This document shows positions 28,836 through 63,229 of a stretch of 64,000 bases of DNA, in pieces. The translations under genes were made by a program, and so were the position numbers. The notes beneath the pieces are model-generated. The model did no database searches. It was not told the origin of the DNA and was given only the letters and a program-made list of their open reading frames with translations. The stretch covers positions 310,001-374,000 of the forward strand of contig JAHHHZ010000036.1 of assembly GCA_019359095.1 (NCBI GenBank), read 5' to 3'. This stretch comes from Pleurocapsa minor HA4230-MV1. Its GTDB lineage: Bacteria > Cyanobacteriota > Cyanobacteriia > Cyanobacteriales > Xenococcaceae. Within the stretch, counting starts at the first letter, position 1, and each line of letters begins with the position of its first letter.

Positions 28836-29150
28836 TAAAACTCCTTATAATCAGATCGACTCTTTTGATCTTTAATTTACCTTGTTCTAACAATTGATGT
28901 CATCTTTCTCAAGTCTAGACTGTTTTCAACTAATTATAATGTGGGGAAATTTACTAGATCTTGAAAAGGCTATAACAAAGCAAAGCATCAACTCGACCAT
29001 AAGCAGGAATATTGTAAGCATTTCAACATCTCCTGGTCTCATGCTCTTTATCATTGGAACGTTTGGCAACATTTTTATCCTTACTTTGATGTAAAGGAGG
29101 TTTAAAATTATTAAAATTAAAAGTACCAAGTCTTTACAGAACTAGAGTTG
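28836..29150. other. Gap without a recognisable gene
   Basis: About 315 bp. Two overlapping short open frames occur here, one on each strand (about 65 codons each), but neither has a convincing composition or family. The stretch GTAAAGGAGGTTTAAAATTA at 29092-29111 looks like a strong ribosome-binding site without a following start, and may be the leftover of a lost gene. Confidence 0.4.
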
Positions 29151-42665: not shown

Positions 42666-45600
42666 ATATCAAGTTCAAAATCGAGATTATTTAATTCTTC
42701 TAATAGTAAAGCTTCTGCTTGTGATTCTGATAATTTCTCAATATTTAATGCATTATTATTTATTTCAGCAGCTTCCTTATTTTTAATTAGCTCAGAATTG
42801 AATAACAAAGATGATAAATAATTGCTCAGTGCTGTAAGATTGGCATAATCAAAAATAACAGTTGGCGATAGCTTTAGATTGTAACTAGATTGGAGTTTAT
42901 TTCTTAATTCTACTGAACCTAAAGAATCTAAGCCTAACTCAGCAAAACCTGATGCTAAATCAATCTTACTTAAATCTTTAATGCCTAATATATCTGCTAA
43001 CTGTTGACTTATTTGTTCTTTTAATAAATATTCTCTTTGCTCAGGAATTGCAGCAAGCAAATGTTGTTTGTAATCACTACTATTCTCAGCATAAGCTGGT
43101 ACAGAAACTAAATTTTCGTAGTAAGGCGTAACAGAATTATGTTGTTGCCATAGATCCCAATCAAAGGGGATTACCCCTATCTGTGGGGGAGCATTTAATA
43201 GTAATTGTTCTAAGATTTCAATTCCTTGATTAGGTTTAATTGAGCCAATTCCTTGTTGCTTGAAAGCGTTTGTGATCTGAGTATTAGCAGCTAATCCTGT
43301 ATTTTTCCACGCACACCAGTTAATCGCGATCGCAGGTAATCCTAAATTACGTCGAGCATGAGCTAAAGTATCGAGAAAAGCATTAGCAGCACAATAATTA
43401 GCTTGTCCTGCCGAACCAAGTAGAGAACTGGCGGAAGAAAACAGAATAAAGTTATCTAGGTCGTATTTTTGGGTTAAATGGTGTAAATTCCAGGCTCCTT
43501 GAACTTTTGGGGCAAGAACTTGCTCGAAACTATGCCAGTCTTGTTGGGCAATAGTGCGATCGCTGATTATTCCTGCACAGTGAACCACTCCTTTTAGTGG
43601 CGGTAACTCTAATTCGATTTGTATTAGAACCTGGGCTAGTTGATCTGTATTAGCAATATCTGCTTTAATAAGTTTAACTTGGGCCTTATCTTGAATTTTT
43701 TTGAGACTACTTTCTAATTCAGGTTTGATATCATTACGTCCAAGCAAGACAAGATTAGTTACCCCCTTAGTTACTAACCATTGGGCTATCTGTAAACCAA
43801 TTGCCCCCATTGCTCCTGTAATCAGGTATGTACCTGTATATGTTTTGTGGGTAGGGGTTATTCTGGCATAATCCCTACTATTCATTGCAATGATAATTTT
43901 TCCTTGGTGTTTCCCCTGCTGCATATAGCGAAAAGCAGCAATAGTTTGCTCTTGAGTAAAGACAGTGTGGGGTAGGGGTTTAAATGTTTCAGCTATAAAT
44001 TGCGATCGCTTGTTTAGTTTACTGTGCAATTCCCTTAACATTTGCTGGATTAATTCAGGCTTGTCTTGGGTGATCTGCCAGAGATCGACAATCGAGTAAT
44101 TAATACTTGGTTCTACTTGTGCTACCTCTGATGGTGACCAAATACCTTGCTTGCCTATTTCAATCAAACGCCCATGTTTATTTAATACCGCAATACTTTT
44201 AGCAATAAACTCTCCTGAAAGAGAATTCAATACGACATCAACACCCTTGCCATTGGTTGCCGAGATAATTTCTTCAGCAAAATCAAGACTACGGGAGTTC
44301 ATAATCTGTTTTACTCCCATAGACTCCAGCAATGACCATTTAGACATAGAAGCCGTGGCGTATATTTCCGCGCCGATGTTTTGGGCGATTTGAATAGCAG
44401 CTAAACCAACTCCCCCTGCTGCTGCGTGAATTAAAACCTTTTCTCCTGGCTGGAGTTTGGCCACATAAACCAGGGTGTAATAAGCTGTCAGGAAAGTTAC
44501 AGGGATAGTTGCTGCTTCAAGCAAACTCAAAGATGCAGGTTTATTAATAGCTAGCTGGGAATTAACCACTAGGTATTGACTAAAGCTGTTTTCGGCAATT
44601 GCCATCACTTCATCCCCAGGCTTAAAGTTAGTTACCTTACTACCTACAGAAATAATTATCCCCGCACATTCTATGCCTAGAAATTTTGTTTGATCGGGAT
44701 ATAAATCTAAAGCTACCATCACATCACGGAAATTTAACCCCGTAGCTTTAACCTCGATTTCAATTTCATCAGCTTGAGGTTGTTGTCGGTTAATAGATTT
44801 CCATTGCAGACTATCTAAATTACCAGGATTATTGATATTTAGCTGAAAATTTCCCTTATTGATGGAAGATTTACCAATGGGCGATTGACCAATCGCCCCT
44901 ACAATTCTTACCAACCTGCTAACATAACGCTGATTATCTCGATAGGCAACCTGTTCCATTCCTGAGTCGCCAAGTTCCTGAAAAATATTAGCTGCTGCGT
45001 TATCCAAAGAGTCTATATCTATCCCAACGCATCTTAACTCAGGATGTTCTAAAGCGATCGCTTTTTGCATCCCCCAAAGACAAGAGTTTTTAATTCCTGG
45101 TGTAAGTTGATAGTTACCAACAGGTTGTGCATTATGGGTAACAAACCACAAAGAGGAATGAGTGGCGGATTGAATTAAAGCCTGTACTAGATATAAATAA
45201 TTTTGGCACTCTTGCCAGTTTTCAGTAAGATCCAAACTCCAGAGATATATAACCCCTGTAACTGTAGGATGTTGTTGAATTAAATCTGAGCAAGCTTGAG
45301 GATCGTCGGTAATTGTGTCACGAGTAATAAGATGGCATTGCTGCTGTCGATCTTCTAGTTGTCTAGCCAACTGTTGACCGATACCTGTACTGTCAGTAAA
45401 AATTAACCACGTACCCGTATTTGATAAAGAGGATGGAGTCAATAATGGTTGTGGTTTCCATTGCGGTTGATATAGCCAATTGTGCCAAGCTGGTTGAGAT
45501 TTGATTGCTTGAGATTTTAAGCCTTCAATTTTGGCAATTAGATCGCCAAAATCGTTATATAGCCAGACATCTGCCATTAAGACTTGATGCTGATTATGAT

Positions 45601-48600
45601 CTTGTCGTAATTTTAGATAACTCCAAACTCGCTGATGAGGAAAATATTGTAGATCTAGTTTTTCTAAACCGACGGGGATATAAGTTATAGCTTGTAATTC
45701 TCTAGGTAAAGCGGCAAAGAGTATTTGTAAACAAGCATCTAATAGTGCAGGATGAAAATAATAGGCTGCGCTGCTGAGGTGATTTGGTAGTTCAATTAAT
45801 CCCAAGGCTTGATGATCTTTTGCCCACAGTTGTTTGATGCCCTGAAAGCTTTTACCGTAGTTAATTCCTTTGTCTTGGCAGTTTAAATAATGTTGTTCAA
45901 CATCTAATTCAGTCTGGTTAAATTTAGTTCTAATCTCGTTTAAAGTTTGACCTTCAATTAGCATATTTGAGCTAGAAACTTGACCAGAACAATGTAGTTG
46001 CCATTCACCATCATTTAAACTATGAATTTCCCAATGACAAGCTTCTGTTGTGTCAGAGGTTATTATTTGAATTTCCTGCTCTAGCTTTAAGTTATTTAAG
46101 TTATTTTTAATATATAGAGGAGTATAAATATCAATATTTTTAATTAGCAATCGGTTAGTTTTACCATGAAATAAGCCCAAGGCGATCGCTATTTCTAAAT
46201 AAGCCGTACCAGGAAAGATAATTTTACCTGCTAAACAGTGATCTTGTAACCAATTATAAGTATCAGCCTGTAGATAAGATTGAAAAATGGTTTGTTTTAC
46301 AGGAGAAGAAATTAACTTACCTAACAAAGGATGAATTAAATTATCAACACTTTTTATAGCTTGATAGTTAGTAACTTCTGTCGGAATATCAAACCAATAT
46401 CTTTGTCTTTGAAAAGGATAGGTAGGTAAAGATATTTTATTGGCGTTATAGTTTTGGGTGACAGCTTGCCAGTTTATCTCTATACCTGCTGTATATAATT
46501 GTGCCAGGTTTTCTAAGATATTTTGCCAATCTGCTTGTTGTGAATCGAGACTATGTAAAAATAACTTATTATCTCGATCATCTATAATACCTGTGACGAT
46601 ATTTTTCAAAATGGGTTTTGTTCCCACTTCTAAAAATATATCTACCTGTTGAATAGCTAAATATTCAATACTTTGAGCAAACTGAACAGGTTGTAATATA
46701 TGTTTTATCCAATAATCAGCCGTGGCGATCGTTTCATCCGCTAATTCTCCCGTCAGATTAGAAACAAGCGGTACTTTAGGTAAAGAGTAATTAATACTTT
46801 CGGCTACTAGTTTAAACTCCTCTATCATCGGCTGCATTAAAGGAGAATGAAAAGCATGAGATACATTTAATAATTTAGTTTTGATTGCTAAATTATCTAG
46901 TTGTTGACTAATCTGCTCAATATCTTTTTCCAATCCTGATAATACTAAATGCGTCCCATTGTCCGCTGCAATACTTATCTTATTAGCAAGTAAATGCTCG
47001 ATCTTATCTTTACTACTAAAAACTGCCAACATTGCCCCATTTTCAGGTAAGCTTTGCATCAACTTACCCCTAGCACAAACTAACTTCAAAGCATCCTCTA
47101 AGCTAAATATTTCTGCAATAGTTGCTGCTACATATTCGCCAATACTATGTCCGATCGTGACATCAGGTTTAATGCCCCAAGCTAACCATAGTTGCGCCAG
47201 AGAATATTCAATGATGAATAATAACGGTTGAAGATATTGGGTTTGATTGATATCAACATCCCACAGGGACGTGTCACAAATTTGACAACAGCGATCGCAA
47301 TTTTCTTTAAACACATCGCAGGTATCGTATAATTGCCTTGCCATATCAACGTATTGCGAACCTTGTCCTGTAAACAGAAAAGCTAATTTATGGTGTTGGA
47401 TTGGTTCTTCGATCGATATTGCTGCTAGTTTTTTAATTAATTCCTGTTTATCTTTAGCAACAATACCCTGACGATAATCAAAATGATGTCTGCCAATATT
47501 ACTAGTTAAACAAATATCTGCTAAAGACGCTGCACAATTACTCTCGAACGAGTTTTGATAGTCGATCGCTAGTTCCTTTAAAGCAATTTTATTTTTAGCC
47601 GATAAAGTTAATAAATAAGCAGGCAATAATTGAGTCGTAGTTTCTGTTTGATTAACAAATTCTTCTAAGACAACATGAGCATTAGTCCCACCAATCCCTA
47701 AAGAATTAACTCCTGCACGACGAGGATAAAATTCAGTTTTCCAGTCTTGTAGCTGAGTATTAATATAAAAACGACCCTGCGCAAAATCAATCTGCGGATT
47801 AGGACGATTAAAATGTAAGCTTGCAGGAATTTTCTGATGATATAAACACAGGGTGGTTTTAATTAAACCGACAATTCCCGATGCCATTTGCAGATGTCCG
47901 ACATTAGTTTTTACTGAACCGATCGCACAATCACTTTTTCTGGTATCATCATGATATGCTTGGGATAATGCTGTAATTTCAATCGGATCGCCTAGTTTTG
48001 TCCCTGTACCATGGGCTTCAATATAACTAACCGATCGAGGTAAGATGTCTGCGTAGGCGATCGCTTCGGCGATTACTCTAGTTTGCCCGTCTACATTTGG
48101 TGCAAAATAACCTACCTTAGCACCACCATCATTATTAACCGCCGATCCTTTAATTACGCTATAAATGCGATCGCCATCTTCTATCGCTCGCTCTAGTAGC
48201 TTTAACACCACCATCCCCGCTCCACTACCAAAGATTGTGCCTGACGCCTCAGCATCAAATGCCCGACAATGACCATCTGCGGATAAGATCATACCTTCTT
48301 GGTATAGATAGCCCATTTTTTGCGGAGAATGAACGGAAACACCACCAGCTAAAGCCATGTCGCATTCGGCATTAATTAAACTCTGACAGGCTAAATGAAC
48401 CGCGACTAGAGAGGTGGAACAGGCTGTTTGCACATTCACACTCGAACCTGTCAGATTAAGCTTATAAGATGTTCTGGTGGTAAGATAGTCCTTGTCATTT
48501 GCCGTAGTGACTTGAAAGCCCCCCATCGAGCTTAAATTCATCACCTGTAAATCATCCTGGCGATCGATCTGATGGCGATGAGGATAAATATTATTTAACA

Positions 48601-51004
48601 GATAAGTATTAGTTGCTGCACCACCATAAAGACTAATATCACCCTGGTAGTTAAAAGGATCGTAGCCTGCATCTTCCAAACTTGACCAAGCACATTCCAT
48701 AAATAAACGTTGCTGCGGATCTAGTAATTGAGCTTCTTTCGGACTATAGCCCCAAAAATCGGCATCAAAGCTTTCTATGTCATTTAAAATCGGACTAGCT
48801 TTTACATAATTAGGATTATTAACCAATGCAGCATCAACCCCAGCATTAATCATCTCTCGATCGCTAAAAAAGCTAATCGACTCCACGCCATCACACAAGT
48901 TATGCCAAAACTCGTTAATATTATTCGCCCCTGGAAAGCGACAAGACATACCAATAATTGCAATATCTCGATTACCTGTAGCCTGACGGCGCAACTCTCC
49001 CCGACGTTTACCCTGTTGTACAGCAATAGATTCTGGTTCGCTATGCAAATAATTAGCCAAAGCAGCAATAGTCGGATACTGAAACAGCAACACCGCAGAC
49101 AAATCATATTCAGGAGTCAACTTACTCAATACCTGCATGAGTAATAAAGAATTTCCACCTAACTCAAAAAAGTTATCCTTAACCCCAACCTTGTCTAACT
49201 TCAAAACCTCTTGCCATATCTTTACCAGTCGCTGTTCGATCGCATTACCAGGCAACTCCTGCTGACTTAAATTCCGCTGGTTAAATAACTGTTCTATCTC
49301 CGAAATAATAGCCTTAAACTCCCCCGCAGCAAATCTTTGACTCAATTGCGATCGCTTGATTTTGCCAATTGCCGTCTTCGGTATAGTCTCTTGCGTCACA
49401 GGAATAATATAAGCAGGAGTAACCCCCATCTGCGTAAAAACATCCCTGCGGACGGTATTAATTAATCCTCTTAACTCATTACCTCGATAATCCGTATGGA
49501 AAAAAACCGCTATTTGCTCTTGCCGATTAAGATCCATAACGCCACAGACAGCAGTATAAGAAATGCTCACTCCTGCGATCGCTTCAACCACGGATTCAAT
49601 TTCGTGATTATAATAATTAACCCCATTAATAATAATTACTTCCTTTTCTCGCCCCGTAATTGTCAGTTGCCCCGACTCCAAAAAGCCCAAATCCCCCGTC
49701 TTAAACCAACCATCATCAGTAAAGATCTCCTGGTTTAACTCCGACTGCTGATAATATCCTGCTGTGATCGTTTCCCCCTTAACCTGTAATAGCCCAACTT
49801 CACCTTCAGGAATTACTTGATTCCCTTCGTCTACAATGCGTAAAGACACCCCAGGAATCGGCGCACCGACTGACACAGATTCCCGATTCAAATTCAGATA
49901 AAAATCCTGTAGGGGCGATTGGTGAAGCACTTGCGGTGGACAGGTATCCTGGCATAAGCAAAGTGCTGAACCCGAAGGGTCAATCGCCCTCCAATGAGCT
50001 ATTCCCGAAGTAGTTTCCGACATCCCGTAACCAGGGCTAACTACCGTCGGAGATAAACCATAAGGGGTAAGTAATTTGAGAAACTGCCCCATAGTCTTGC
50101 CCACAACCGCTTCTGCCCCATTGCCCATCCAGCGTAGACAAGACAAATCCCAATTGTGTTTAACTGTCCGATCTAAATTCCGTTCTAATTGTTGATTAAC
50201 TAAGTTATAAGCAAAATTAGGACTCCAGGTGGCACTTACGCGATACTGATGGATTAAATCCAACCATTGCAGAGTATTTTGCAGAATAAACTCACTTTTA
50301 ACCTGAATTTGCTGACATCCCAAATATACTTCCGTCAAATGGAACATCACCAAACTAGCGACGTGTTCCAAAGGCATCCAGTTCAAACTAATATCCTGTT
50401 GAGAAAGCTGATTCACCGTAGCCATACCGTAAACGCTGGCGATTAAATTACGGGCAGATAACATTACTCCTTTAGGCTTCCCTGTACTGCCCGAAGTCAA
50501 TAATAACAACGCCAAATCATCCAAATTGCCCTGATGCCAATAGCGATCGCGATTATTACCCAACAAATCCTCAACTTGAACTGTAGCTAAATCCGCTATA
50601 TCCCTATCGGCAATTACCACAGAAGGATTACATAACTCCCAAGCTTGCTCAATACGGCGATCGCCATTAAGATCTACGCCCAAAGGAATAGGTACAAATC
50701 CACCCAAAAAACAGCCCCACAAACAAACAAAAAAATGTCGCGGATCTTGCAGCTGAAGGATCACCCGATCTTGTGGTTGTAAATTACGTTGACGTAACCC
50801 AGCTAAGACACGTTCAGCCTCTGCCAATAAATCGCTGTAGGCTAAAAACGTTGACTGATTTCCATCGATCAAAACAATTCCCGTCGAATATTCAGCAGCC
50901 CGTTCCAGCATTTTAGGTAAATTAGTACTAAAAACAGAACTCGGCAAAACAGCCCCATGACAGAGAGAAAGATTAACGGAAACTTGTTCTGACAACTTAT
51001 TCAT
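42662..51004 (-). CDS. AMP-ligase/type I polyketide synthase, fully reducing module (AL-ACP-KS-AT-DH-ER-KR-ACP)
   Basis: 2780 residues, cytosolic. AMP-ligase 1-560 (LLLTSGSTGKPKGVM, PGYGMSETTSG, GWFKTGDLG, KTAIGKIKR) would activate a carboxylic, probably fatty, acid. ACP1 585-655 (Ser619 in LGGNSLLLM). KS 677-1115 (Cys862 in QTACSTSL, His998, His1037). AT 1205-1500 (Ser1287 in GHSIGEY; SHAFHSP indicates malonyl-CoA). DH 1558-1830 (His1589 in HCLAGKIIFP, Asp1756 in HPALLDA). ER 2075-2375 (LIHAAAGGVGLAA). KR 2390-2570 (TGAMGAIG, Tyr2537). ACP2 2660-2735 (Ser2694 in LGLDSLGS). All catalytic residues look intact, so one round should give a fully saturated two-carbon extension. There is no thioesterase or sulfotransferase as in olefin synthases. 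The tail IEKLSESQAEALLLEELNN resembles linkers before docking regions, but no following module is encoded nearby. The product is unknown. Confidence 0.95.
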   Translation of the reverse strand: MNKLSEQVSVNLSLCHGAVLPSSVFSTNLPKMLERAAEYSTGIVLIDGNQSTFLAYSDLLAEAERVLAGLRQRNLQPQDRVILQLQDPRHFFVCLWGCFLGGFVPIPLGVDLNGDRRIEQAWELCNPSVVIADRDIADLATVQVEDLLGNNRDRYWHQGNLDDLALLLLTSGSTGKPKGVMLSARNLIASVYGMATVNQLSQQDISLNWMPLEHVASLVMFHLTEVYLGCQQIQVKSEFILQNTLQWLDLIHQYRVSATWSPNFAYNLVNQQLERNLDRTVKHNWDLSCLRWMGNGAEAVVGKTMGQFLKLLTPYGLSPTVVSPGYGMSETTSGIAHWRAIDPSGSALCLCQDTCPPQVLHQSPLQDFYLNLNRESVSVGAPIPGVSLRIVDEGNQVIPEGEVGLLQVKGETITAGYYQQSELNQEIFTDDGWFKTGDLGFLESGQLTITGREKEVIIINGVNYYNHEIESVVEAIAGVSISYTAVCGVMDLNRQEQIAVFFHTDYRGNELRGLINTVRRDVFTQMGVTPAYIIPVTQETIPKTAIGKIKRSQLSQRFAAGEFKAIISEIEQLFNQRNLSQQELPGNAIEQRLVKIWQEVLKLDKVGVKDNFFELGGNSLLLMQVLSKLTPEYDLSAVLLFQYPTIAALANYLHSEPESIAVQQGKRRGELRRQATGNRDIAIIGMSCRFPGANNINEFWHNLCDGVESISFFSDREMINAGVDAALVNNPNYVKASPILNDIESFDADFWGYSPKEAQLLDPQQRLFMECAWSSLEDAGYDPFNYQGDISLYGGAATNTYLLNNIYPHRHQIDRQDDLQVMNLSSMGGFQVTTANDKDYLTTRTSYKLNLTGSSVNVQTACSTSLVAVHLACQSLINAECDMALAGGVSVHSPQKMGYLYQEGMILSADGHCRAFDAEASGTIFGSGAGMVVLKLLERAIEDGDRIYSVIKGSAVNNDGGAKVGYFAPNVDGQTRVIAEAIAYADILPRSVSYIEAHGTGTKLGDPIEITALSQAYHDDTRKSDCAIGSVKTNVGHLQMASGIVGLIKTTLCLYHQKIPASLHFNRPNPQIDFAQGRFYINTQLQDWKTEFYPRRAGVNSLGIGGTNAHVVLEEFVNQTETTTQLLPAYLLTLSAKNKIALKELAIDYQNSFESNCAASLADICLTSNIGRHHFDYRQGIVAKDKQELIKKLAAISIEEPIQHHKLAFLFTGQGSQYVDMARQLYDTCDVFKENCDRCCQICDTSLWDVDINQTQYLQPLLFIIEYSLAQLWLAWGIKPDVTIGHSIGEYVAATIAEIFSLEDALKLVCARGKLMQSLPENGAMLAVFSSKDKIEHLLANKISIAADNGTHLVLSGLEKDIEQISQQLDNLAIKTKLLNVSHAFHSPLMQPMIEEFKLVAESINYSLPKVPLVSNLTGELADETIATADYWIKHILQPVQFAQSIEYLAIQQVDIFLEVGTKPILKNIVTGIIDDRDNKLFLHSLDSQQADWQNILENLAQLYTAGIEINWQAVTQNYNANKISLPTYPFQRQRYWFDIPTEVTNYQAIKSVDNLIHPLLGKLISSPVKQTIFQSYLQADTYNWLQDHCLAGKIIFPGTAYLEIAIALGLFHGKTNRLLIKNIDIYTPLYIKNNLNNLKLEQEIQIITSDTTEACHWEIHSLNDGEWQLHCSGQVSSSNMLIEGQTLNEIRTKFNQTELDVEQHYLNCQDKGINYGKSFQGIKQLWAKDHQALGLIELPNHLSSAAYYFHPALLDACLQILFAALPRELQAITYIPVGLEKLDLQYFPHQRVWSYLKLRQDHNQHQVLMADVWLYNDFGDLIAKIEGLKSQAIKSQPAWHNWLYQPQWKPQPLLTPSSLSNTGTWLIFTDSTGIGQQLARQLEDRQQQCHLITRDTITDDPQACSDLIQQHPTVTGVIYLWSLDLTENWQECQNYLYLVQALIQSATHSSLWFVTHNAQPVGNYQLTPGIKNSCLWGMQKAIALEHPELRCVGIDIDSLDNAAANIFQELGDSGMEQVAYRDNQRYVSRLVRIVGAIGQSPIGKSSINKGNFQLNINNPGNLDSLQWKSINRQQPQADEIEIEVKATGLNFRDVMVALDLYPDQTKFLGIECAGIIISVGSKVTNFKPGDEVMAIAENSFSQYLVVNSQLAINKPASLSLLEAATIPVTFLTAYYTLVYVAKLQPGEKVLIHAAAGGVGLAAIQIAQNIGAEIYATASMSKWSLLESMGVKQIMNSRSLDFAEEIISATNGKGVDVVLNSLSGEFIAKSIAVLNKHGRLIEIGKQGIWSPSEVAQVEPSINYSIVDLWQITQDKPELIQQMLRELHSKLNKRSQFIAETFKPLPHTVFTQEQTIAAFRYMQQGKHQGKIIIAMNSRDYARITPTHKTYTGTYLITGAMGAIGLQIAQWLVTKGVTNLVLLGRNDIKPELESSLKKIQDKAQVKLIKADIANTDQLAQVLIQIELELPPLKGVVHCAGIISDRTIAQQDWHSFEQVLAPKVQGAWNLHHLTQKYDLDNFILFSSASSLLGSAGQANYCAANAFLDTLAHARRNLGLPAIAINWCAWKNTGLAANTQITNAFKQQGIGSIKPNQGIEILEQLLLNAPPQIGVIPFDWDLWQQHNSVTPYYENLVSVPAYAENSSDYKQHLLAAIPEQREYLLKEQISQQLADILGIKDLSKIDLASGFAELGLDSLGSVELRNKLQSSYNLKLSPTVIFDYANLTALSNYLSSLLFNSELIKNKEAAEINNNALNIEKLSESQAEALLLEELNNLDFELDI

Positions 51005-55416: not shown

Positions 55417-55470
55417 TAACCATTAGTGACAAGTTAAGATTAACTGATTAAATATCAACTATTGGCAAAG

Positions 55471-56517
55471 ATGACAAAGGAAAAAACAGAAGATGAAATC
55501 TTATTGATTAAATTATGCAAAGGATTAATAGAAGTAGGCGATCGCATTAATCGGGGTGAACCTGCTTATCTAGTCGATCATTCTCAGCCATTTCCTCAGC
55601 CTTTGTACGAAGCATTTGAAAAATTAAGTATAAAGTGGATATTGCGCGATGGAGGAATGCGTCATCCTTCCATACTAAATATGGTTGAAGCAGCTAGAAA
55701 GTCAGTAGAAGCAGTTGAACCAGATTTTTGTGAATGGGTTGATTTTCCTGATGAACCTCTAATAGAAGACATGACAAGACCATCTGACGAATGTGAAGAA
55801 TATGCTAGTGAATATAGTTTTAGTTTAGATATTGATAACAATCAAAGCTATATTCCCCGATTGATGGAGGAAATCAGAAGGTTTGATTTGCCTCATAGCA
55901 CTTACACAATATTTCGTCGTTTTATAGCAGAAAATCTTTTTCCTTCAGAATCCGATATAGCTATTTTGCGAGATAATCATCCCGAAATTGAAAGAGTCAA
56001 AGAGTTTTTATCTAAACCCTATCGAGACGCACCTCCTCAATCAGATTCCAAACCACTATGTAAAACTTGTGGCGGATATTTAGACTGTGCAGCCAGAGAA
56101 ATTGGATATTGCAAACCTTTAGATCGCAAAGTTGATAAAGCACCAATTCTCGATACTGTTATTTCTGTAATTAGACCATCTTTCATTGAGCTACGCTTAG
56201 ATAAAAAGTTCAAAGATATGGGATTAGAAATAGAATTGTGGCCAGAATTAGATACAGCAGATTTAAAAATTACATTTCCAGATGGTAAGTTTTGGGCAAT
56301 TGATGCTAAAGACTGGGGAAGTGCAACTAAGTTAGCTAGAAAACTGAATCAAGATACCATCCAAAATTTTGGTCAATCTAAATCATTTTTTGTTGTTCCA
56401 GATTATCGATTAAATAAACTTAAATATCAAGCAATTTTTCAAAGTAAATATCAAGGGAGTATTCCTCTAATTTCCGAATCAGAATTAATTAAGCGCGTCA
56501 AAAGAGAATTACAATGA
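55471..56517 (+). CDS. pPIWI-RE-associated PD-(D/E)xK nuclease-like protein
   Basis: First gene of the three-gene pPIWI-RE island, 348 residues. The C-terminal domain (about 230-348) has a restriction-endonuclease-like core: an acidic FIELRLDKKFKDMGLEIELW segment, DTADLKITFPDGKFWAIDAK with Asp264 and the D278-A-K280 motif, and FGQSKSFFVVPDYRLNK. A four-cysteine cluster, Cys197-x2-Cys200-x5-Cys206-x7-Cys214, precedes it and should bind zinc. The N-terminal 190 residues are helical and unrecognised. In pPIWI-RE operons this nuclease is predicted to cut DNA located by the PIWI protein. ATG 55471 is chosen over TTG 55462. Its stop overlaps the helicase start (ATGA). Confidence 0.8.
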   Translation: MTKEKTEDEILLIKLCKGLIEVGDRINRGEPAYLVDHSQPFPQPLYEAFEKLSIKWILRDGGMRHPSILNMVEAARKSVEAVEPDFCEWVDFPDEPLIEDMTRPSDECEEYASEYSFSLDIDNNQSYIPRLMEEIRRFDLPHSTYTIFRRFIAENLFPSESDIAILRDNHPEIERVKEFLSKPYRDAPPQSDSKPLCKTCGGYLDCAAREIGYCKPLDRKVDKAPILDTVISVIRPSFIELRLDKKFKDMGLEIELWPELDTADLKITFPDGKFWAIDAKDWGSATKLARKLNQDTIQNFGQSKSFFVVPDYRLNKLKYQAIFQSKYQGSIPLISESELIKRVKRELQ

Positions 56518-59500
56518 GAGATTCAAGCAACTGGATAAATGTTCTTAGACAACCTTTAAGTGGTGCCATTCCTTTGAAGTTTTCTAATTTTGCTCGTATC
56601 GAATTAATGTTGTATGCCTTGCAAGCTTATTTTCCCAGGCAACAAATACGTGAAGCTCATTTATTGATGCAGGGTTATAGAGAACCAGTAATTAACGATA
56701 ATCAGTGGGAAATTATTAAACATTTACGTCATTTAGCACCAGAGTTTCGTAGTTCAATTAGTTGGGAAATTGCTCTGCGTAATTATGATGATATGGCTAA
56801 CAGTGATGTTGCTGGATGGTTGGGATTTGAGCTTGATTATGACAATAACCGTATTACTCTAAGCAATAATATGGTAATGAATCGATATGCAGTATATGAA
56901 AATATACTAACAAAAAGCTCCCTTAAGTTTTCTCAACGAGAATATAATCCAGCACCTCAAGGAAATTATCAATTTAATATTAGTTCAGAGCAGATAAGAT
57001 TAGTTGGAATTTCAGATGCGATCGCAAATATAGGAATACAGCATCAAAATAATATTCCTAGTATTAATCTAAATCATAATCATTTGCCAATCAGAATATC
57101 TCTCGAACAATTAGTTGAACGAGGACGAAATTTAAGCTCGGTTTTAGGTTACGATGCGGGAGAAATCATAGAGAGATCGAGCTATTGGGATATTAAGCAA
57201 GATCGACAAACCAACGAGATTTTTATTGATGGTGAGAGTCATATTTTAGGCCCTACTGGAAGTGGGAAGTCTACCTTAATCGAATGTTTAATTACTTTAT
57301 TAATTGAACAAAATAAAAGAATTGCGATCGCTACTAATAGTCTGGGAGAAGTTCAAGATTGGTTAGAATTTGCTCAAAAAATAGGTATTAAAGCTATTCC
57401 CATTATTGGTAATTCGGAACGACATAAACATCTAAGTCGGCTTAATCAAGCTGTGATGTTTGGTAATAGACAGCAATCTTTTACTCACCCTGGTTTTAAA
57501 TGGCTCAGTCAATGTTGCTCTTTGTTTGCTTTAGCAACATCATCAATTCCCCAGTCAAATAGTCAACGACGCAATAAAACACCTTGTTTTAATCAACTAG
57601 AAGATATTGACGATCCGAAGCAGAAAAAGTACGATTGTCCTCTGATTGGTGTTTGTCCTCAACACATTACATCAAAGGAATTAGAAGAAGCCCAATTAAT
57701 TGTCGGGACATTACCAGGATTTATCCATAAGAAAGTATCTCGTCACAATCTAGAAGAAAACATTACTATTCTGGAATATTTAGCTCTAACAACCGATTTA
57801 TTCGTAGTTGATGAAGTCGATCTAGCTCAACCTAAACTAGACGAGCTTTTTTATCCTATTGTTACTATTGCATCTTTTAAACCAATTCAAGATACTTGGT
57901 CGCGTAGTGAATTTTATCAGCACGTAAACAGTGTTTTAGAAGGCGAAATAGTTGTTCTTGAAAGTTTTAAAGATTCTTGTCTTGAGGAATCAGAGGGTTG
58001 GAAATTTTTAGCTTGTAAAGCAATTGGGGATTTGATGTATTCTCTGAGAGATATTGAGACTGCCAACAAAGGGAAAAAACCCATACAAGAAATTGAAAAA
58101 CTGTTCAAAGAATGCTCTGGCGAAGGAAGATTATTTGCTGCTTGGTCTTTGTTTGACACTCTTGCCGAACATCTGTCGGGAAAAATCAAAATACGCTTGG
58201 GTAAAAAAATACGTCAACCAACTGCTCAAAAATACGAACGTAGTTACGAAAGGTATCGTCAAATTTTTAAACCCATACAAGATAACCCCACCGATCCCGA
58301 TCTAACAGGACTGAATCCTAAAGACAGTAAAATTGTTAGCAAATTAGCTTCAATTGCAGGAATTTTAGCAGGACAAGCTTATCAAAATATTCCTCATGAT
58401 AAATGCGTGGAATTTATCAAAGAAACCAAATGGGATACCGAACTAAGCAGATTAGAATCAGATGATGAACTATTTACCAAGAATTTAGCAACTCTATTAC
58501 AACTATCTATTTTTGCAACTCAAGCTTTGGGTGCATTAGGTAAGCACTTTTCTACGAGAAGACAATCTAGTAGCGAACTTCAATCTAATTTACCGTTGAT
58601 TCCTCCAGTAGATTTTGAACGTTTATTACCTGCTTCTCCTGTAGGTGCTGTAACCAGCGCACAATATCAAGATGGACACCTAAAAATACATCGAGGTATT
58701 TGTATTGGGCGATCGCTTTTTAGTCAATGGAGAGATATTTTTAGCGTTGATGGGTTAGTGCCTTCTCATTTGCTAGTCACTTCTGCCACTAGTTATTCAG
58801 GAGAAAACAAGCAATCATATCCCTTCCACGTTCAACAACAACCCAGCTTACTAATTGAACCACCTCCAGAAAAAGCTAAAACAATAGCTTACGAAAGCGA
58901 ATTTTTCTTTTGTCCTGTATCTGATGATGCTGGCGATCCTGTCTGGGTATCAGGTTCACAAGGGGATGAACGTTACAACAACATTGGTAAGATGGTTTCT
59001 GGTTTGTGTCGTCCTTCTGCACATGGTAAACCTCTAATCGAGCAGTTTCAAGATTATTTGGTCAACAAGATAGATAGCGATCGCAAAAATCTACTTTTAG
59101 TTACTAATAGTTACGTAGAAGCAAAAACTTTCTATGACTGTTTAAAGCCACCCTATAAAGATAAAGCCTCTTTTGTAGTTCGAGATGGAGACAGTGTTTT
59201 ATGGTCGCCTGATATTAATGTTCCCCGTTCCAAAATGACAGAATTTCCTAGTTTAGGAAAAGAACTGTTGATCGCTCCAATTGGCGCTATTTCACGTGCC
59301 GTCAACTTAATGCACCCAGACAATCCCCAAGAACCTTATTTTGGCGGTATGGTAATTCTAGTTAGACAGCATCCTCGTCCAGATGACAATCAACTAATCA
59401 TTAGTGCTGTTAACAAAAATGCAGTAGATAATATTGGTTCTCAATCTGTAGCAACTATTCAAAGACAAGCCAGAAACACAAGAGATATCTTTCTAGCTGT

Positions 59501-59846
59501 ACCGCAAATTTTTTCTCAATTACCAGACGAATTGCAAGGAGTGGCAATGAAACAGCCTCTTGTTTGGACTTTAGCAGTAAATTTAACTCAATTGATCGGA
59601 CGTAGCACTCGTGGAGGTCGTAAAACCATTGTTTGGTTTACTGATGCAGCATTTATGCCTCAAACTGCACAAGGTAAGCGTGCTGGTGATACAGAGCAAA
59701 ATTCTCTTTTGTTAGCAGTACGAAAACTTTTAGGGGATGCTATTAAACAAGGTGGCTCATCTAGTCGCTTAATTCAAACTTTATACGGGCCAGTTTATTA
59801 CCCTCTGACTCGTTTGACTCATTTTATTAGCGGAGTAAAGCTGTAA
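56514..59846 (+). CDS. pPIWI-RE-associated DinG/XPD-type helicase
   Basis: Second gene of the island, 1110 residues. The N-terminal about 200 residues (IELMLYALQAYFPRQQIREA, IKHLRHLAPEFRSSISWEIA) are likely the pPIWI_RE_Z-type accessory domain. A superfamily 2 helicase follows: Walker A HILGPTGSGKSTLIECL near 245, and cysteines around 334-382 (QCCSLF, TPCFNQ, YDCPLIGVCPQ) that fit the iron-sulfur cluster of DinG/XPD helicases. Motif II is VVDEVD near 433, and motif VI QLIGRSTRGGRKTIVWFTDA near 1027. It should unwind duplex DNA or an R-loop for the PIWI partner. It is longer than plain DinG (about 700) because of inserts in the middle. It overlaps the nuclease gene by 4 bp. Confidence 0.85.
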   Translation: MRDSSNWINVLRQPLSGAIPLKFSNFARIELMLYALQAYFPRQQIREAHLLMQGYREPVINDNQWEIIKHLRHLAPEFRSSISWEIALRNYDDMANSDVAGWLGFELDYDNNRITLSNNMVMNRYAVYENILTKSSLKFSQREYNPAPQGNYQFNISSEQIRLVGISDAIANIGIQHQNNIPSINLNHNHLPIRISLEQLVERGRNLSSVLGYDAGEIIERSSYWDIKQDRQTNEIFIDGESHILGPTGSGKSTLIECLITLLIEQNKRIAIATNSLGEVQDWLEFAQKIGIKAIPIIGNSERHKHLSRLNQAVMFGNRQQSFTHPGFKWLSQCCSLFALATSSIPQSNSQRRNKTPCFNQLEDIDDPKQKKYDCPLIGVCPQHITSKELEEAQLIVGTLPGFIHKKVSRHNLEENITILEYLALTTDLFVVDEVDLAQPKLDELFYPIVTIASFKPIQDTWSRSEFYQHVNSVLEGEIVVLESFKDSCLEESEGWKFLACKAIGDLMYSLRDIETANKGKKPIQEIEKLFKECSGEGRLFAAWSLFDTLAEHLSGKIKIRLGKKIRQPTAQKYERSYERYRQIFKPIQDNPTDPDLTGLNPKDSKIVSKLASIAGILAGQAYQNIPHDKCVEFIKETKWDTELSRLESDDELFTKNLATLLQLSIFATQALGALGKHFSTRRQSSSELQSNLPLIPPVDFERLLPASPVGAVTSAQYQDGHLKIHRGICIGRSLFSQWRDIFSVDGLVPSHLLVTSATSYSGENKQSYPFHVQQQPSLLIEPPPEKAKTIAYESEFFFCPVSDDAGDPVWVSGSQGDERYNNIGKMVSGLCRPSAHGKPLIEQFQDYLVNKIDSDRKNLLLVTNSYVEAKTFYDCLKPPYKDKASFVVRDGDSVLWSPDINVPRSKMTEFPSLGKELLIAPIGAISRAVNLMHPDNPQEPYFGGMVILVRQHPRPDDNQLIISAVNKNAVDNIGSQSVATIQRQARNTRDIFLAVPQIFSQLPDELQGVAMKQPLVWTLAVNLTQLIGRSTRGGRKTIVWFTDAAFMPQTAQGKRAGDTEQNSLLLAVRKLLGDAIKQGGSSSRLIQTLYGPVYYPLTRLTHFISGVKL

Positions 59847-59905
59847 TTGTAGTATTAATAATAGTGATGGCATAAAAATAAAATATCGACTAACCAAAGT
59901 AAATT

Positions 59906-62500
59906 ATGGCAAAAAACCAGAGATACAATCATTTTCAACCAATTTATTTTGAATATATTGAGGCCTTAACTAAAGATATTGCTGGTTGGGTAATGCCATT
60001 TCCTAACTTAAAACGATTTAAAAGTAGTTACGGAGAAGAACAAGAAAACGCCCCAACAAATTCCTTGTTAGATATACTACGTTTACTTTTACCTCAAATC
60101 AGAGTCATTAATAAACTTGTTGTTGACGGTCAGCCTAACCCAGCAGCTTTTTTAGCTTACGAACCGATAGACCCTAAAATTTTATCTTTGATATTCAGCA
60201 AATGGGTTGAAGTTTGGTATCCAGAATTAGAACATCAATATTTAAAATCTTTATGTACTCCTAATCAATTTGAGTGGAAGTCTGCAACCCCAGAACAATT
60301 AGAATGGTGGTCGCCAGCCTGGTCAGTAGCAAAACATTTAAGTAAATATCAGGATGGAGAATATAGATACAAGCTGGGCAATAATGAATTCAATTTACTG
60401 TTTGCTCCAGGAAGAAAAGGGAATACTGTAGAGTTAGTTTCTTGGCCACCTTTTTCTACTCCTAGCGGTTATAAATCTTCTCTTGGAATTATCATATCTA
60501 GCCAAAGCGATTTTTCCGATAGAAGAATTAATATTCATTTCAAGATGAAACGTTGGGTAGTCAAAAGAGGAGAAAATGTAGACATTAATTTACAAACCAA
60601 AACCACCCATTGTTATATTCGTCGATTAACTTCTTGGTCAGGAAATTTTAATCTTCTTGAACCAAATGCTTTTACTGTTTTAGAAGCTAAAAACTTTAGA
60701 AGAGAAAGTCACGGTAGAAGCGAGTCTAATAACTCTACAGGCGCAGACGAGAAAAAATTTGAGCGTCGCTGGAAAGACAAAAAAATTCTCGAAATACTAG
60801 AAAAGCTATCAGTAGATATTCCCGATCTAGAAGATGTTCTCCAAAATCCTCTGAATTATATAGAAACAGAAAAGACAGATATTCTCATACCTGCCAGAAG
60901 CTGGCAAAAAGCAGGATGGGGGACAGGATTCACTATTTCTGATAGTAGAAGATTATTAAAACAAATTATTGCCTTTCTTCCTGCGGGCGCAACTTTAACT
61001 AAACCTTGGCAAAAAATATCAGCAATTAAAGATAATGACGTAATAAAAGAAAAATCTAAGGATGCTGATAAATCGATTAAAAGGCAATTCATCAAAAATC
61101 CTAAGCTCCAAAAACCATCTCAAAATCAACTACCAGAATTAACTGAAGAATTTAAAGAGTTTCTGCAACAAAGAGCAAACAATATAACCCTTCATGTATG
61201 CAGTTTGGCTGATTCTAAAACAAAAGATGCTATCGAAAAAGTTGCCAATCATTATTTTGGAGATAGCTTAAAACTAAAATTCTATTCGTCACAAAGTTTA
61301 GCCGATCCCATACAGTACGAAAAATCTAAAAAGAAAGACTCCAAAAACAAAAAAATTCCTCAGTTAAAACATATTAAAAAGTTCGGTGAACAATATCAGC
61401 CAGAGAATCCTGAGCCAATCATAGTAGAAATTTTGTCTTCACATCATCCTTTATATAATGGCGATGCCGATCCAAAATCTTACATTAAATCAGAACTGCC
61501 AAAATACAATCTCATTCCTCAATGTATTGTTTCTGCCGAAAATATCGATAAAGAAACCAAAGAAGCTACTTTAGATAAAAAAGCTAAAAAAAGTCTTTTA
61601 AATCGAGCTTTATCGTCGATTTTAGATGCAATAATGCCATTTGATCGACATTATCCTTTAACTACATCCGAAGATAATAACGTTTATGCGGGATTTTATG
61701 TCATCTCCCGCAACAAAGCAACTTCTAGCCAAAGCTTTAACGAACCAGTGTTAGTGGTTATCTACAAAAATGAGATTAAGGTTTTATTACCAGCACAAGA
61801 TACAAAACTGCGTTCTTTTCCTCAATCTATCTGTCATTTAGCGAATAATACCAAAAATACGACTCGGCAGGATGAACGTACCGTCAATACAATGCTAGAA
61901 CAACTTAGTATTAATTATTCCGATGCGGACAACATCTATCTATATGCTCACGAGCAAAATGCTCGAACATATTGGCAATGGTTACAAGATGGAAAATTTG
62001 ACAAAGATAATCCACCAACTAAGAAAATCACTATTATGCGAGTTCGAGATTCAGAGAGTAATGAAGTGGCACAAGGCTACGGATTAGAAACAAAAGATGA
62101 AGATTTTACAGCCAAATTCAATCCAGAATCAGCATCTTTTGCGCAGGGAATATTTATTGCTCCAAACTGCGAGATCAATAATATTCCACTTACTCGAACT
62201 ATATTAAGTGTTGCGCCCAAACCACAGACACTTAGCAAGCAAATAAAAACTACCAGTCGTGTCGAATCTTATACTGATTTTAAAGGAGAGACTAAAAGTC
62301 CATCTCCTAATACTGATTGGAAAATGCCACAACCTCGCTCTCACAATATTTTAGCTACGCCATCGCCAGACAAATTTATCTTACATCATGCGATCGCACA
62401 TCATTTAAGATCTGTTCATTGGTGGAGTGCCGATGAATGCGAATATCCACTACCTCTTTCCTTAGCTAAGAAAATTAAAGAGTGGTGTTTTAGTACATAA
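59906..62500 (+). CDS. Prokaryotic PIWI protein of pPIWI-RE type
   Basis: Third gene of the island, 864 residues. The N-terminal region (residues 1-400) has family-like VELVSWPPFSTPSGYKSSLG IIISSQSDFSDRRINIHFKM KRWV, and TDILIPARSWQKAGWGTGFT. A MID-like region follows (ITLHVCSLADSKTKDAIEKV ANHYFG, IIVEILSSHHPLY). The RNase H-fold PIWI-like domain covers about 580-864: VYAGFYVISRNKA, NIYLYAHEQNARTYWQWLQD, ITIMRVRDSE and, at the end, DECEYPLPLSLAKKIKEWC. The first RNase H strand (YAGFYVIS) lacks the usual Asp, so slicing may be absent and the partner nuclease may cut. Expected to bind nucleic-acid guides or R-loops and direct anti-plasmid or anti-phage defence (family knowledge). 59 bp after the helicase gene. 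Confidence 0.82.
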   Translation: MAKNQRYNHFQPIYFEYIEALTKDIAGWVMPFPNLKRFKSSYGEEQENAPTNSLLDILRLLLPQIRVINKLVVDGQPNPAAFLAYEPIDPKILSLIFSKWVEVWYPELEHQYLKSLCTPNQFEWKSATPEQLEWWSPAWSVAKHLSKYQDGEYRYKLGNNEFNLLFAPGRKGNTVELVSWPPFSTPSGYKSSLGIIISSQSDFSDRRINIHFKMKRWVVKRGENVDINLQTKTTHCYIRRLTSWSGNFNLLEPNAFTVLEAKNFRRESHGRSESNNSTGADEKKFERRWKDKKILEILEKLSVDIPDLEDVLQNPLNYIETEKTDILIPARSWQKAGWGTGFTISDSRRLLKQIIAFLPAGATLTKPWQKISAIKDNDVIKEKSKDADKSIKRQFIKNPKLQKPSQNQLPELTEEFKEFLQQRANNITLHVCSLADSKTKDAIEKVANHYFGDSLKLKFYSSQSLADPIQYEKSKKKDSKNKKIPQLKHIKKFGEQYQPENPEPIIVEILSSHHPLYNGDADPKSYIKSELPKYNLIPQCIVSAENIDKETKEATLDKKAKKSLLNRALSSILDAIMPFDRHYPLTTSEDNNVYAGFYVISRNKATSSQSFNEPVLVVIYKNEIKVLLPAQDTKLRSFPQSICHLANNTKNTTRQDERTVNTMLEQLSINYSDADNIYLYAHEQNARTYWQWLQDGKFDKDNPPTKKITIMRVRDSESNEVAQGYGLETKDEDFTAKFNPESASFAQGIFIAPNCEINNIPLTRTILSVAPKPQTLSKQIKTTSRVESYTDFKGETKSPSPNTDWKMPQPRSHNILATPSPDKFILHHAIAHHLRSVHWWSADECEYPLPLSLAKKIKEWCFST

Positions 62501-62581
62501 GAAGTAACGCAAGCGCTCTTTAATTACACAAAATACAGAAGAACTATAATTTGAGTAACCCCAAAATGATCCCATAAAATT

Positions 62582-63187
62582 ATGACTTCGGCATTATTAA
62601 GAGATTTTTTTCAACTTGATGCTAGCGATCGCGAAGAAAAATTCCTAACTTCTAATGTAACTTGGCAAGCTTATGAGTCACTTCTGACATCATTGGGGGA
62701 TAGTTCTAGTTATCGAGTGGCTTACTTATTAGGAACTTTAGAAATTATGTCGCCCAGTCGTAGTCATGAATTAGATAAAAAAGCGATCGCCAGGTTATTA
62801 GAAGTTTATCTAGAAGAGAATCGTATTCGTTTTTGGGGATTGGGTTCAACTACTTTTCGTAAAGAAGATAAGCAAGCAGGAAAAGAACCAGACGAGTGTT
62901 ATTGTATCGGTACAGATAAAGATATTCCCGATCTGGCAATTGAAGTTATTTATACCAGTGGCGGTGTTGATACTCTAGAGATTTATCAGCGTTTGGGTGT
63001 CGCGGAAGTATGGTTCTGGCAGGATCAACAGCTTAAAATTTATTGTTTGCAAGATAATAACTATCAACAGCAAATACAAAGTCAATTATTACCAGATTTA
63101 GATTTAACTTTATTGGCACAATATGTAGTTATCAGCGATCCTTTAGAAGCAGTTATTAAGTGGCGCAAACAAGTTCGAGTCGATTAG
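62582..63187 (+). CDS. Uma2-family (DUF820) nuclease-like protein
   Basis: A 201-residue Uma2 protein of a different subgroup from that at 29.1 kb. It has VTWQAYESLLTSLGDSSSYR VAYLLGTLEIMSPSRSHELD (the usual first acidic motif) and STTFRKEDKQAGKEPDECY. The PD-(D/E)xK core is DIPDLAIEVIYTSGGVDTLE IYQRLGVAEVWFWQ, with a clear PDLAIEV strand. Targets of this very abundant cyanobacterial family are unknown. It lies 81 bp after the PIWI gene in the same direction; since Uma2 genes are scattered widely, its position may be coincidence. Confidence 0.9.
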   Translation: MTSALLRDFFQLDASDREEKFLTSNVTWQAYESLLTSLGDSSSYRVAYLLGTLEIMSPSRSHELDKKAIARLLEVYLEENRIRFWGLGSTTFRKEDKQAGKEPDECYCIGTDKDIPDLAIEVIYTSGGVDTLEIYQRLGVAEVWFWQDQQLKIYCLQDNNYQQQIQSQLLPDLDLTLLAQYVVISDPLEAVIKWRKQVRVD

Positions 63188-63229
63188 TTTTTGTATGATT
63201 GAGCAAAAAAAACAAAAATTTATGTTTAA

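What the first reader, a model, noticed from the sequence alone, without database searches (positions are those of the whole stretch)
55471..62500. Complete pPIWI-RE three-gene island in a cyanobacterium
A nuclease-like gene, a DinG/XPD-type helicase gene (ATGA overlap) and an 864-residue PIWI-like gene occur in one direction with gaps of -4 and 59 bp. This matches the pPIWI-RE arrangement predicted from comparative genomics as a guide- or R-loop-dependent defence against plasmids or phages. Seen directly: the order, overlaps, Walker A, Fe-S cysteines and D-A-K motif. From family knowledge: the module name and predicted role. It is not a Cas or short-Ago system, and no CRISPR array is nearby.
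Basis: partly seen in the sequence, partly recalled or inferred. Interest (0 to 1): 0.88.

Follow-up and report, generated by a model that had tools for sequence, protein, structure and literature searches.

The report
pPIWI-RE operon with dead PIWI site
A cyanobacterium carries an intact three-gene operon (DNA-cutting enzyme, DNA-unwinding enzyme, Argonaute-like protein) of a kind described in 2013 and thought to attack foreign DNA; here the Argonaute-like part has lost its own cutting site, so the neighbouring nuclease probably does the cutting.

Summary
Three co-directional genes lie at 55471-56517, 56514-59846 and 59906-62500 (gaps -4 and 59 bp). Pfam and PADLOC place them in the pPIWI-RE three-gene island of Burroughs et al. 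2013 (REase 1.4e-26, domain Z 2.8e-32, RNaseH_pPIWI_RE 1e-22, PprDinG 5e-103, PprPIWI 3e-95), so the kind is known. (1) The PIWI belongs to a small cyanobacterial lineage (100/100 support) that lacks both RNase H aspartates (Tyr598, His682) and the name-giving Glu (Ser812); the Arg is kept. (2) Three of four guide-pocket positions of the MID domain align with pAgo pocket residues (K524 for Tyr, K528, Q539; the fourth is unresolved), and the REase and DinG motifs are intact. The likely division of labour is a guide-binding sensor with separate helicase and nuclease, as in ApsAB, DdmDE and BPAN. (3) The island fills a 20-23-bp gap between a TPR gene and ruvC that is empty in two close relatives; several relatives of the island are broken. 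Best reading: guide-directed attack on invading DNA, with the REase cutting. This is untested; a role under replication stress, for which the one published knockout gives evidence, is the main rival.

The parts
55471..56517 (+). REase gene (348 aa from the ATG): Y-like helical part, Cys-containing stretch, C-terminal PD-(D/E)XK domain with D261, D264, D278, K280
   Evidence: Pfam PF18154 1.4e-26; PF18156 (Y) 0.034, below cut-off; PADLOC PprRE 3.2e-20; active-site columns identical in 14 of 14 rows; positions
56514..59846 (+). DinG/XPD-type helicase gene (1110 aa) with N-terminal domain Z, Walker A, DEVD, four cysteines (335, 358, 375, 381) and QLIGRSTRGG
   Evidence: Pfam PF18155 2.8e-32; PADLOC PprDinG 5.1e-103; motif columns
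59906..62500 (+). PIWI gene of the pPIWI-RE type (864 aa): domain X, MID, RNase H-like domain
   Evidence: Pfam PF13111 2.9e-17, PF18157 8.9e-6 (26.5 bits, cut-off 26.6), PF13032 1e-22; PADLOC PprPIWI 3.3e-95 over residues 6-859; fold matches
61475..61522 (+). MID pocket positions K524, K528, Q539, aligned with the Y/K/Q of pAgos; a fourth basic residue, R567 (61604-61606), has the spacing of RsAgo K506 but is not aligned with the pAgo Lys
61697..61951 (+). positions of the two RNase H catalytic Asp, here Tyr598 and His682 (predicted nuclease-dead)
62039..62344 (+). Arg of the 'RE' signature kept (R712, R714); the Glu position is Ser812, next to His813, with no Glu nearby in that stretch
55417..63229 (.). 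segment present here between the TPR gene and ruvC and absent from two close relatives (three island genes plus a Uma2-family gene)
62582..63187 (+). Uma2-family gene inside the extra segment; probably a passenger
   Evidence: Pfam PF05685 8.9e-22; PADLOC PDC-S17 7.2e-83; tblastn finds a relative in 1 of 8 loci of the lineage searched (L035, upstream, other strand) and in none of 12 genus ruvC regions

Best explanation
A pPIWI-RE three-gene island whose PIWI protein works as a guide-loaded sensor without cutting activity of its own. Proposed steps: (a) the PIWI binds the 5' end of a short guide in its MID pocket (inferred from conserved residues); (b) it pairs with complementary invading DNA, most likely plasmid or replicating phage DNA (inferred); (c) it recruits the separately encoded DinG helicase, which opens the duplex or R-loop (inferred from the family); (d) the PD-(D/E)XK protein, the only one of the three with an intact nuclease site, cuts the DNA (site shown, act inferred). 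[quoted passage not shown] Shown here: gene order, motifs, loss of the RNase H Asp pair and of the signature Glu, three of four MID positions, an extra segment at an otherwise empty site, and low dN/dS in one pair of relatives. Not shown: guide, target, complex, cleavage, phenotype.
For: Family matches for all three proteins. In 30 aligned PIWI rows the second Asp column is H in all 5 rows of the window lineage (D in 16, E in 7, S and L once each) and the first is Tyr in those 5; no row has Asp at both. A profile comparison with cyanobacterial pAgos (hhalign E 2.4e-5, probability 75%) puts K524, K528 and Q539 on the pAgo Y, k and Q and Tyr598 on the first Asp in its confident part, and His682 on the second Asp in its low-confidence extension. 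RsAgo holds the guide 5' phosphate with Y463, K467, Q478 and K506. REase and DinG motifs are intact. dN/dS for L023 against L034 is low: 0.031/0.368 REase, 0.045/0.329 DinG, 0.078/0.524 PIWI, 0.085/0.476 for the C-terminal part of the PIWI. In ApsAB a MID mutation (K413A) abolished antiplasmid activity. Other lineages of the island occur on plasmids, and the window copy is an extra segment at a site empty in close relatives.
Against: In the papers found, no three-gene island has been shown to defend a cell. The one studied relative, PsPIWI-RE, does cut nucleic acids and its knockout has a ciprofloxacin phenotype. The fourth pocket residue is unsupported: the profile alignment puts the pAgo Lys opposite Pro578, not R567, and Lys replaces the stacking Tyr at the first position. 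The window lineage was not found in the phage, plasmid or viral collections. The resemblance of the REase protein to DdmD is weak (best Foldseek E 0.016; Z 4.5-5.4, a range the tool calls common). AlphaFold confidence is low (pLDDT 57.7 and 60.9). No guide source was seen.
Confidence: 0.5

Rival explanations
1. The island aids replication or repair rather than defence: PIWI, DinG and REase resolve R-loops or stalled forks in the host chromosome.
For: The P. stutzeri piwi-re knockout survives ciprofloxacin about 15 times less well and filaments under it. DinG helicases act on R-loops (citing earlier work).
Against: Patchy: PF13032 in 12 of 386 cyanobacterial genomes; the window protein in 1 of 13 genomes of the genus and 3 of 27 of the family. 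Broken copies in relatives and plasmid-borne copies in other lineages fit a housekeeping role poorly.
Confidence: 0.21
2. Abortive variant: target recognition by the dead PIWI unleashes the REase on the host's own DNA and kills the invaded cell, as in BPAN.
For: BPAN pairs a catalytically inactive long pAgo with a nuclease and degrades genomic DNA after sensing a plasmid. Broken copies in relatives would fit a costly system.
Against: BPAN has no helicase in its description (the word is absent from that paper's text); a helicase suggests work on the target itself, as proposed for ApsAB.
Confidence: 0.15
3. The 2013 model in its catalytic form: the PIWI also cuts the RNA strand of RNA-DNA hybrids while the REase cuts the DNA.
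For: PsPIWI-RE shows RNA-guided DNA and DNA-guided RNA cleavage.
Against: The two Asp needed in PsPIWI-RE (D525, D610) correspond to Tyr598 and His682 here.
Confidence: 0.05
4. A decaying remnant without function in this strain.
For: Of ten relatives of the lineage examined, four (L029, L030, L032, L033) are rearranged or frame-broken and one (L028) has in-frame stops; drafts and MAGs may exaggerate this.
Against: In the window all three ORFs are complete with intact REase and DinG motifs; a 59-bp DinG-PIWI gap is within the range seen elsewhere (-137 to 111); low dN/dS between L023 and L034.
Confidence: 0.09

Closest known systems
pPIWI-RE three-gene island (Burroughs, Iyer and Aravind 2013, PMC3702460)
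   Same: Same three proteins in the same order with overlapping or close ends; Pfam domains X, RNaseH_pPIWI_RE, Z and REase above cut-off, MID at it; Arg of the signature kept
   Different: The name-giving Glu is Ser or Ala in all 5 aligned rows of this lineage; both RNase H Asp lost (also common elsewhere: 0 of 30 rows have the pair); Y domain below cut-off; PIWI of 849-879 aa, shorter than most others sampled
PsPIWI-RE of Pseudomonas stutzeri (PMC10991935)
   Same: PIWI-RE protein encoded with a DinG helicase and a nuclease
   Different: PsPIWI-RE has catalytic D525 and D610 and cuts; here the positions are Tyr598 and His682. The PsPIWI-RE sequence itself was not available for alignment
ApsAB antiplasmid system (PMC11096173)
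   Same: Argonaute-like protein with a Y/K/Q/K-type MID motif, plus helicase and nuclease functions
   Different: ApsA joins helicase and nuclease in one protein, and ApsB does not conserve the RNase H fold. Here three proteins and a recognisable RNase H-like domain. No sequence comparison was made
DdmDE
   Same: Guided Argonaute-like sensor with a helicase-nuclease; the window REase model aligns weakly with DdmD residues of about 927-1189
   Different: Two proteins, DdmD a helicase-nuclease; Foldseek match not significant (E 0.016)
[quoted passage not shown]
   Same: Catalytically inactive Argonaute with a PD-(D/E)XK nuclease partner
   Different: No helicase; long pAgo; abortive outcome

Membership tests
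pPIWI-RE three-gene island | REase, DinG and PIWI genes in this order, ends overlapping or close | tested here: met
   (gaps -4 and 59)
pPIWI-RE three-gene island | Pfam RNaseH_pPIWI_RE and pPIWI_RE_X above curated cut-off | tested here: met
   81.8 vs 25 and 63.3 vs 30.5 bits
pPIWI-RE three-gene island | Pfam MID_pPIWI_RE above curated cut-off | tested here: inconclusive
   26.5 bits against a cut-off of 26.6
pPIWI-RE three-gene island | Conserved Arg of the signature | tested here: met
   R712 and R714; columns R in 28 and 27 of 30 rows
pPIWI-RE three-gene island | Conserved Glu of the signature (E718 of PsPIWI-RE) | tested here: not met
   Ser812 in the window; S or A in all 5 rows of its lineage; E in 21 of 30 rows; no Glu within the residues around it. 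The column was assigned by alignment and spacing, without the PsPIWI-RE sequence
pPIWI-RE three-gene island | REase-fold protein with D/D-x-K | tested here: met
   PF18154 1.4e-26; D261, D264, D278, K280
pPIWI-RE three-gene island | Y domain and zinc ribbon in the REase protein | tested here: inconclusive
   PF18156 14.9 vs 26.7 bits; PADLOC pPIWI_RE_Y 0.0057; CxxC at 197/200, the second Cys pair of other rows not matched in place
pPIWI-RE three-gene island | DinG-type helicase with Fe-S cysteines and domain Z | tested here: met
Active PIWI nuclease (DEDX) | Two catalytic Asp of the RNase H fold | tested here: not met
   Tyr598 and His682
Guide-binding MID domain of Argonautes | Y/K/Q/K-type 5'-end pocket | tested here: inconclusive
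   K528 and Q539 match, K524 stands for Tyr; the pAgo Lys of the fourth position aligns with Pro578, while R567 fits RsAgo only by spacing
Guide-binding MID domain of Argonautes | Binds a short nucleic-acid guide | not testable with these tools
   needs protein work
DdmDE / ApsAB | Helicase and nuclease in one protein | tested here: not met
   separate ORFs
DdmDE / ApsAB | Homology of the window proteins to DdmD/DdmE or ApsA/ApsB | tested here: inconclusive
   only a weak fold match of the REase model to DdmD; ApsAB and DdmE sequences not compared

The most novel reading that the evidence does not exclude
This cyanobacterial lineage has turned pPIWI-RE into a pure guide-loaded sensor: the RNase H site and the signature Glu are lost while most of the MID pocket, DinG and REase are kept, making a three-protein counterpart of DdmDE/ApsAB that arose from a different Argonaute branch with a DinG-type (XPD) helicase.
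Probability: 0.37. Interest if true: 0.65.

Novelty: new variant of a known kind. Interest (0 to 1): 0.42.

Why it matters
What pPIWI-RE islands do has been an open prediction since 2013. An intact island in which only one of the three proteins can plausibly cut separates sensor from effector and makes the prediction testable with two point mutants (MID and REase). If it removes plasmids or phages, guided helicase-nuclease defence would have arisen on at least one more Argonaute branch.

Tried and rejected
Considered and dropped: (1) E720 as the Glu of the signature: it lies 8 residues after R712 and 144 from the end, whereas PsPIWI-RE R639 and E718 are 79 apart and E718 lies about 65 from the end; column 812 fits better (77-133 after R and 52-75 from the end, leaving out the odd or cut rows L077, L079, L080). 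(2) R567 as proven fourth pocket residue: dropped, which aligns the pAgo Lys with Pro578; my odds for the best explanation and the novel case were lowered slightly for this. (3) The Uma2 gene as a fourth member: of 8 loci of the lineage searched, only L035 has a relative nearby, upstream and on the other strand. (4) Target-site duplication at the junctions: none seen by eye. (5) Foreign composition: 1-kb blocks within the island 33-38% GC, blocks to the left of it 38-44%, suggestive only. (6) Promoter and terminator scan: counts at the level of shuffles. (7) Carriage of this lineage by phages, plasmids or viral contigs: none found at the sensitivities used. (8) PDB sequence search with the PIWI protein and with a 23-row profile: nothing up to E 1 and E 10. 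(9) Literature: searches for pPIWI-RE, PIWI-RE (202 papers, 40 listed, most on other subjects), PIWI-RE with DinG, DUF3962, PIWI-RE with Argonaute, defense and restriction since 2023, and PIWI-RE with DdmDE. Of what was listed, two papers study the family itself; the one paper that holds both PIWI-RE and DdmDE mentions them apart. Reviews listed were not opened, and subscription journals and preprints are not held, so the DdmDE comparison may exist in print.

Rows dropped before counts: two of 30 PIWI rows (L077, L075: odd C-terminus, fragment) were left out of the tree and the profile comparison; L079 and L080 were cut to 1100 residues; two short pAgo frames (L103, L104) were left out. The counts use all 30 rows, the five rows of the window lineage including a slice of the fused ORF of L030. 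One search lists 25 islands with three ORFs; fetched islands that are split, cut or broken (L019, L021, L022, L025, L027-L030, L032, L033, L035, L075, L079, L080) are not in it.
Full report
What is there. Three genes lie head to tail on the + strand: a 348-aa nuclease-like gene (55471-56517 from the ATG; a TTG nine bases upstream is also possible), a 1110-aa helicase gene (56514-59846) and an 864-aa gene (59906-62500), with gaps of -4 and 59 bp.

Family. Pfam gives pPIWI_RE_REase 1.4e-26 for the first, pPIWI_RE_Z 2.8e-32 for the second, RNaseH_pPIWI_RE 1e-22 and pPIWI_RE_X 2.9e-17 for the third; the MID model scores 26.5 bits against a cut-off of 26.6, and the Y domain of the first protein is below its cut-off. 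PADLOC gives PprRE 3.2e-20, PprDinG 5.1e-103 and PprPIWI 3.3e-95. NCBIfam gave no match near its cut-offs among the rows shown. Burroughs et al. 2013 describe this triad, its gene order and a predicted role in restriction directed by DNA-RNA hybrids (PMC3702460; abstract and the section on the bacterial family read). One search lists 25 islands with three ORFs, the window included: the gaps range from -44 to 70 bp (REase-DinG) and from -137 to 111 bp (DinG-PIWI), with starts as in the longest frame or as annotated. The first gene was shown to be the REase by alignment in 14 of these and by Pfam in 4 more; in the other 7 it is taken from its position.

Distribution. PF13032 rings in 12 of 386 cyanobacterial genomes, the own genome included, and once in the own genome. 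With the window PIWI protein, 1 of 13 genomes of the genus and 3 of 27 of the family match. A scan of the species-genome collection with a two-row alignment gave 10 loci; seven are of the window's lineage at 50-70% identity (a Crocosphaera MAG, two Nostoc MAGs, Nostoc sp. CHAB 5715, Cyanothece sp. BG0011, Hydrocoleum sp. CS-953, a Xenococcaceae MAG). The method finds close relatives only, so this is a lower bound. The window lineage gave no match in the plasmid, phage and viral collections, whereas other lineages of the island sit on plasmids of cyanobacteria, Streptomyces, Azospirillum, Cupriavidus, Bradyrhizobium and others.

Lineage. In a tree of 28 PIWI rows the window, L023, L031, L034 and L030 form one group with 100/100 support on a branch of 2.13 changes per column; the program warns of long branches, and deeper joins are unsure.

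PIWI active site. In 30 aligned PIWI rows (columns counted) the two RNase H Asp positions are Tyr598 and His682 in the window. The first is Tyr in all 5 rows of the lineage and Asp in 2 of 30 (both of which have Glu at the second position). The second is His in those 5; in all 30 it is D in 16 and E in 7. No row has Asp at both, so loss of the pair is the rule in this sample; the 2013 paper also says that only a subset keeps the catalytic residues. The Arg of the signature is kept (28 and 27 of 30 for R712 and R714). The Glu, assigned to column 812 by spacing to PsPIWI-RE R639 and E718, is E in 21 of 30 rows but S, S, A, A, A in the five rows of the lineage, and there is no other Glu in the stretch printed around it. 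In PsPIWI-RE the R639A and E718A mutants cut like wild type, whereas D525A and D610A did not (PMC10991935, parts 1-3 of 4 read). Loss of the Glu therefore says little about activity; loss of the Asp pair says much.

MID pocket. RsAgo binds the guide's 5' phosphate with Y463, K467, Q478 and K506 (PMC4919518, passages). A profile comparison of the family's C-terminal half with pAgos from cyanobacterial genomes gave E 2.4e-5 and 75% probability (6.6e-5 and 64% with the other master sequence, a pAgo of the window's own genome). Read residue by residue, K524 lies on the pAgo Tyr, K528 on its Lys, Q539 on its Gln and Tyr598 on the first Asp, all in the confident part; His682 on the second Asp comes from the low-confidence extension. 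Against a full pocket: Lys stands in place of Tyr, and the fourth pAgo residue (Lys) lies opposite Pro578; R567 has the RsAgo spacing (4, 11, 28) but is not aligned with that Lys. In the 30 rows the columns are K in 24 (524), R or K in 30 (528), Q in 25 (539) and R or K in 30 (567).

Structure. The PIWI model has mean pLDDT 57.7 and pTM 0.44. Foldseek ranks RsAgo first (E 6.6e-10, but TM 0.19 and rmsd 20.7). VIA-align gives pAgo and PIWI chains at Z 12-14, most with rmsd over 11 A, probably because the domains are misplaced; five rows that cover the MID-PIWI half alone have rmsd 4.5-5.2 A. The REase model (pLDDT 60.9) aligns best with AF2093 (Z 7.1), a VRR_NUC domain (6.9) and Holliday junction resolvases (6.6). 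Among the 50 rows listed, the eleven aligned over more than 160 residues are all DdmD chains (Z 4.5-5.4); DdmDE chains are also Foldseek's first hits, at E 0.016 and above. The tool warns that such Z values are common, so I treat this as a hint.

Site. In two genomes of the same genus (L062, L063; 85-90% DNA identity in the flanks) the protein matches of the TPR gene and ruvC end 20-23 bp apart; in the window the same two genes enclose about 7.8 kb: the three genes and a Uma2-family gene. Of 12 genus genomes fetched, 7 have the TPR gene beside ruvC; in the other 5 no TPR match was found in the stretch held, which in one (L072) ends soon after ruvC. The contig is 603 kb, and ruvC and a trpB-like gene flank the site, so it is probably chromosomal.

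Relatives' copies. Of ten relatives of the lineage (L023, L027-L035), L023, L031 and L034 are complete. L027 and L035 run to the edge of the DNA held. L028 has in-frame stops in the PIWI match. L029 lacks most of the REase and the first 627 residues of DinG, and its PIWI frame is interrupted. L030 has a split REase and DinG 1-869 joined to PIWI in one 1718-aa frame. L032 shows overlapping pieces in all three genes, as of partial tandem repeats or misassembly. L033 lacks the DinG end and the PIWI start. Several of these are MAGs or drafts. L023 against L034 gives dN/dS well under 1 for all three genes and for three parts of the PIWI; dS of many more distant pairs is saturated or undefined.

Mechanism. 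With a dead PIWI, most of a guide pocket, an intact XPD-type helicase and an intact PD-(D/E)XK site, the simplest model is guided recognition with cutting by the REase. Parallels: ApsAB, where mutations in MID, helicase and nuclease motifs were tested for plasmid maintenance and the MID mutation abolished the effect (PMC11096173, passages); BPAN, an inactive long-B pAgo with a nuclease (PMC10620215, abstract, outline and passages); DdmDE (passages of a review and PDB titles only). The main rival is a replication-stress role, from the ciprofloxacin phenotype of the P. stutzeri knockout.

Verdict. The family assignment holds with one defining residue not met. The function is unproven. Known kind, divergent variant, of moderate interest as a clean test object.

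Noticed in passing
G000:C29:111347-112234 and G000:C36:88919-89662 (loci L086, L087): The same genome encodes two classical Argonaute-type PIWI domains (783- and 713-aa frames). L086 has Gly and Asn where the profile has the two catalytic Asp.
   Followed up: partly
window 20457-22526: A DndD/PbeC-type ATPase gene (PADLOC PbeC 2.8e-274) with no other Dnd/Pbe hit among the 17 other window ORFs scanned with PADLOC; the genome has two more DndD-like genes on contig C31 (that family also rings weakly in 12 of 14 control genomes).
   Followed up: partly
window 42662-51004, - strand: A 2780-aa polyketide synthase with AMP-binding, carrier, KS, AT, DH, zinc-dehydrogenase (ER-like), KR and carrier matches.
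   Followed up: no
L030 7394-12550 (Nostoc sp. TH1S01 MAG): DinG residues 1-869 run in frame into the PIWI protein, one 1718-aa ORF; deletion, fusion or assembly error.
   Followed up: partly
L079, L080 (Bradyrhizobium and Microvirga plasmids), L077 (Azospirillum plasmid): pPIWI-RE genes of 9.3 and 10.2 kb instead of about 3 kb, so the PIWI is fused to something large; in L077 a separate 7.2-kb gene follows an 846-aa PIWI gene.
   Followed up: no
L023, L030, L034: In these Nostoc-type relatives the island lies downstream of a succinate dehydrogenase-type flavoprotein gene (Pfam), unlike the ruvC site of the window.
   Followed up: partly
window 29148-29768: A 206-aa gene with weak hits to the PADLOC candidate PDC-S03 (6.4e-12); the Uma2 gene beside the island hits PDC-S17.
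   Followed up: no
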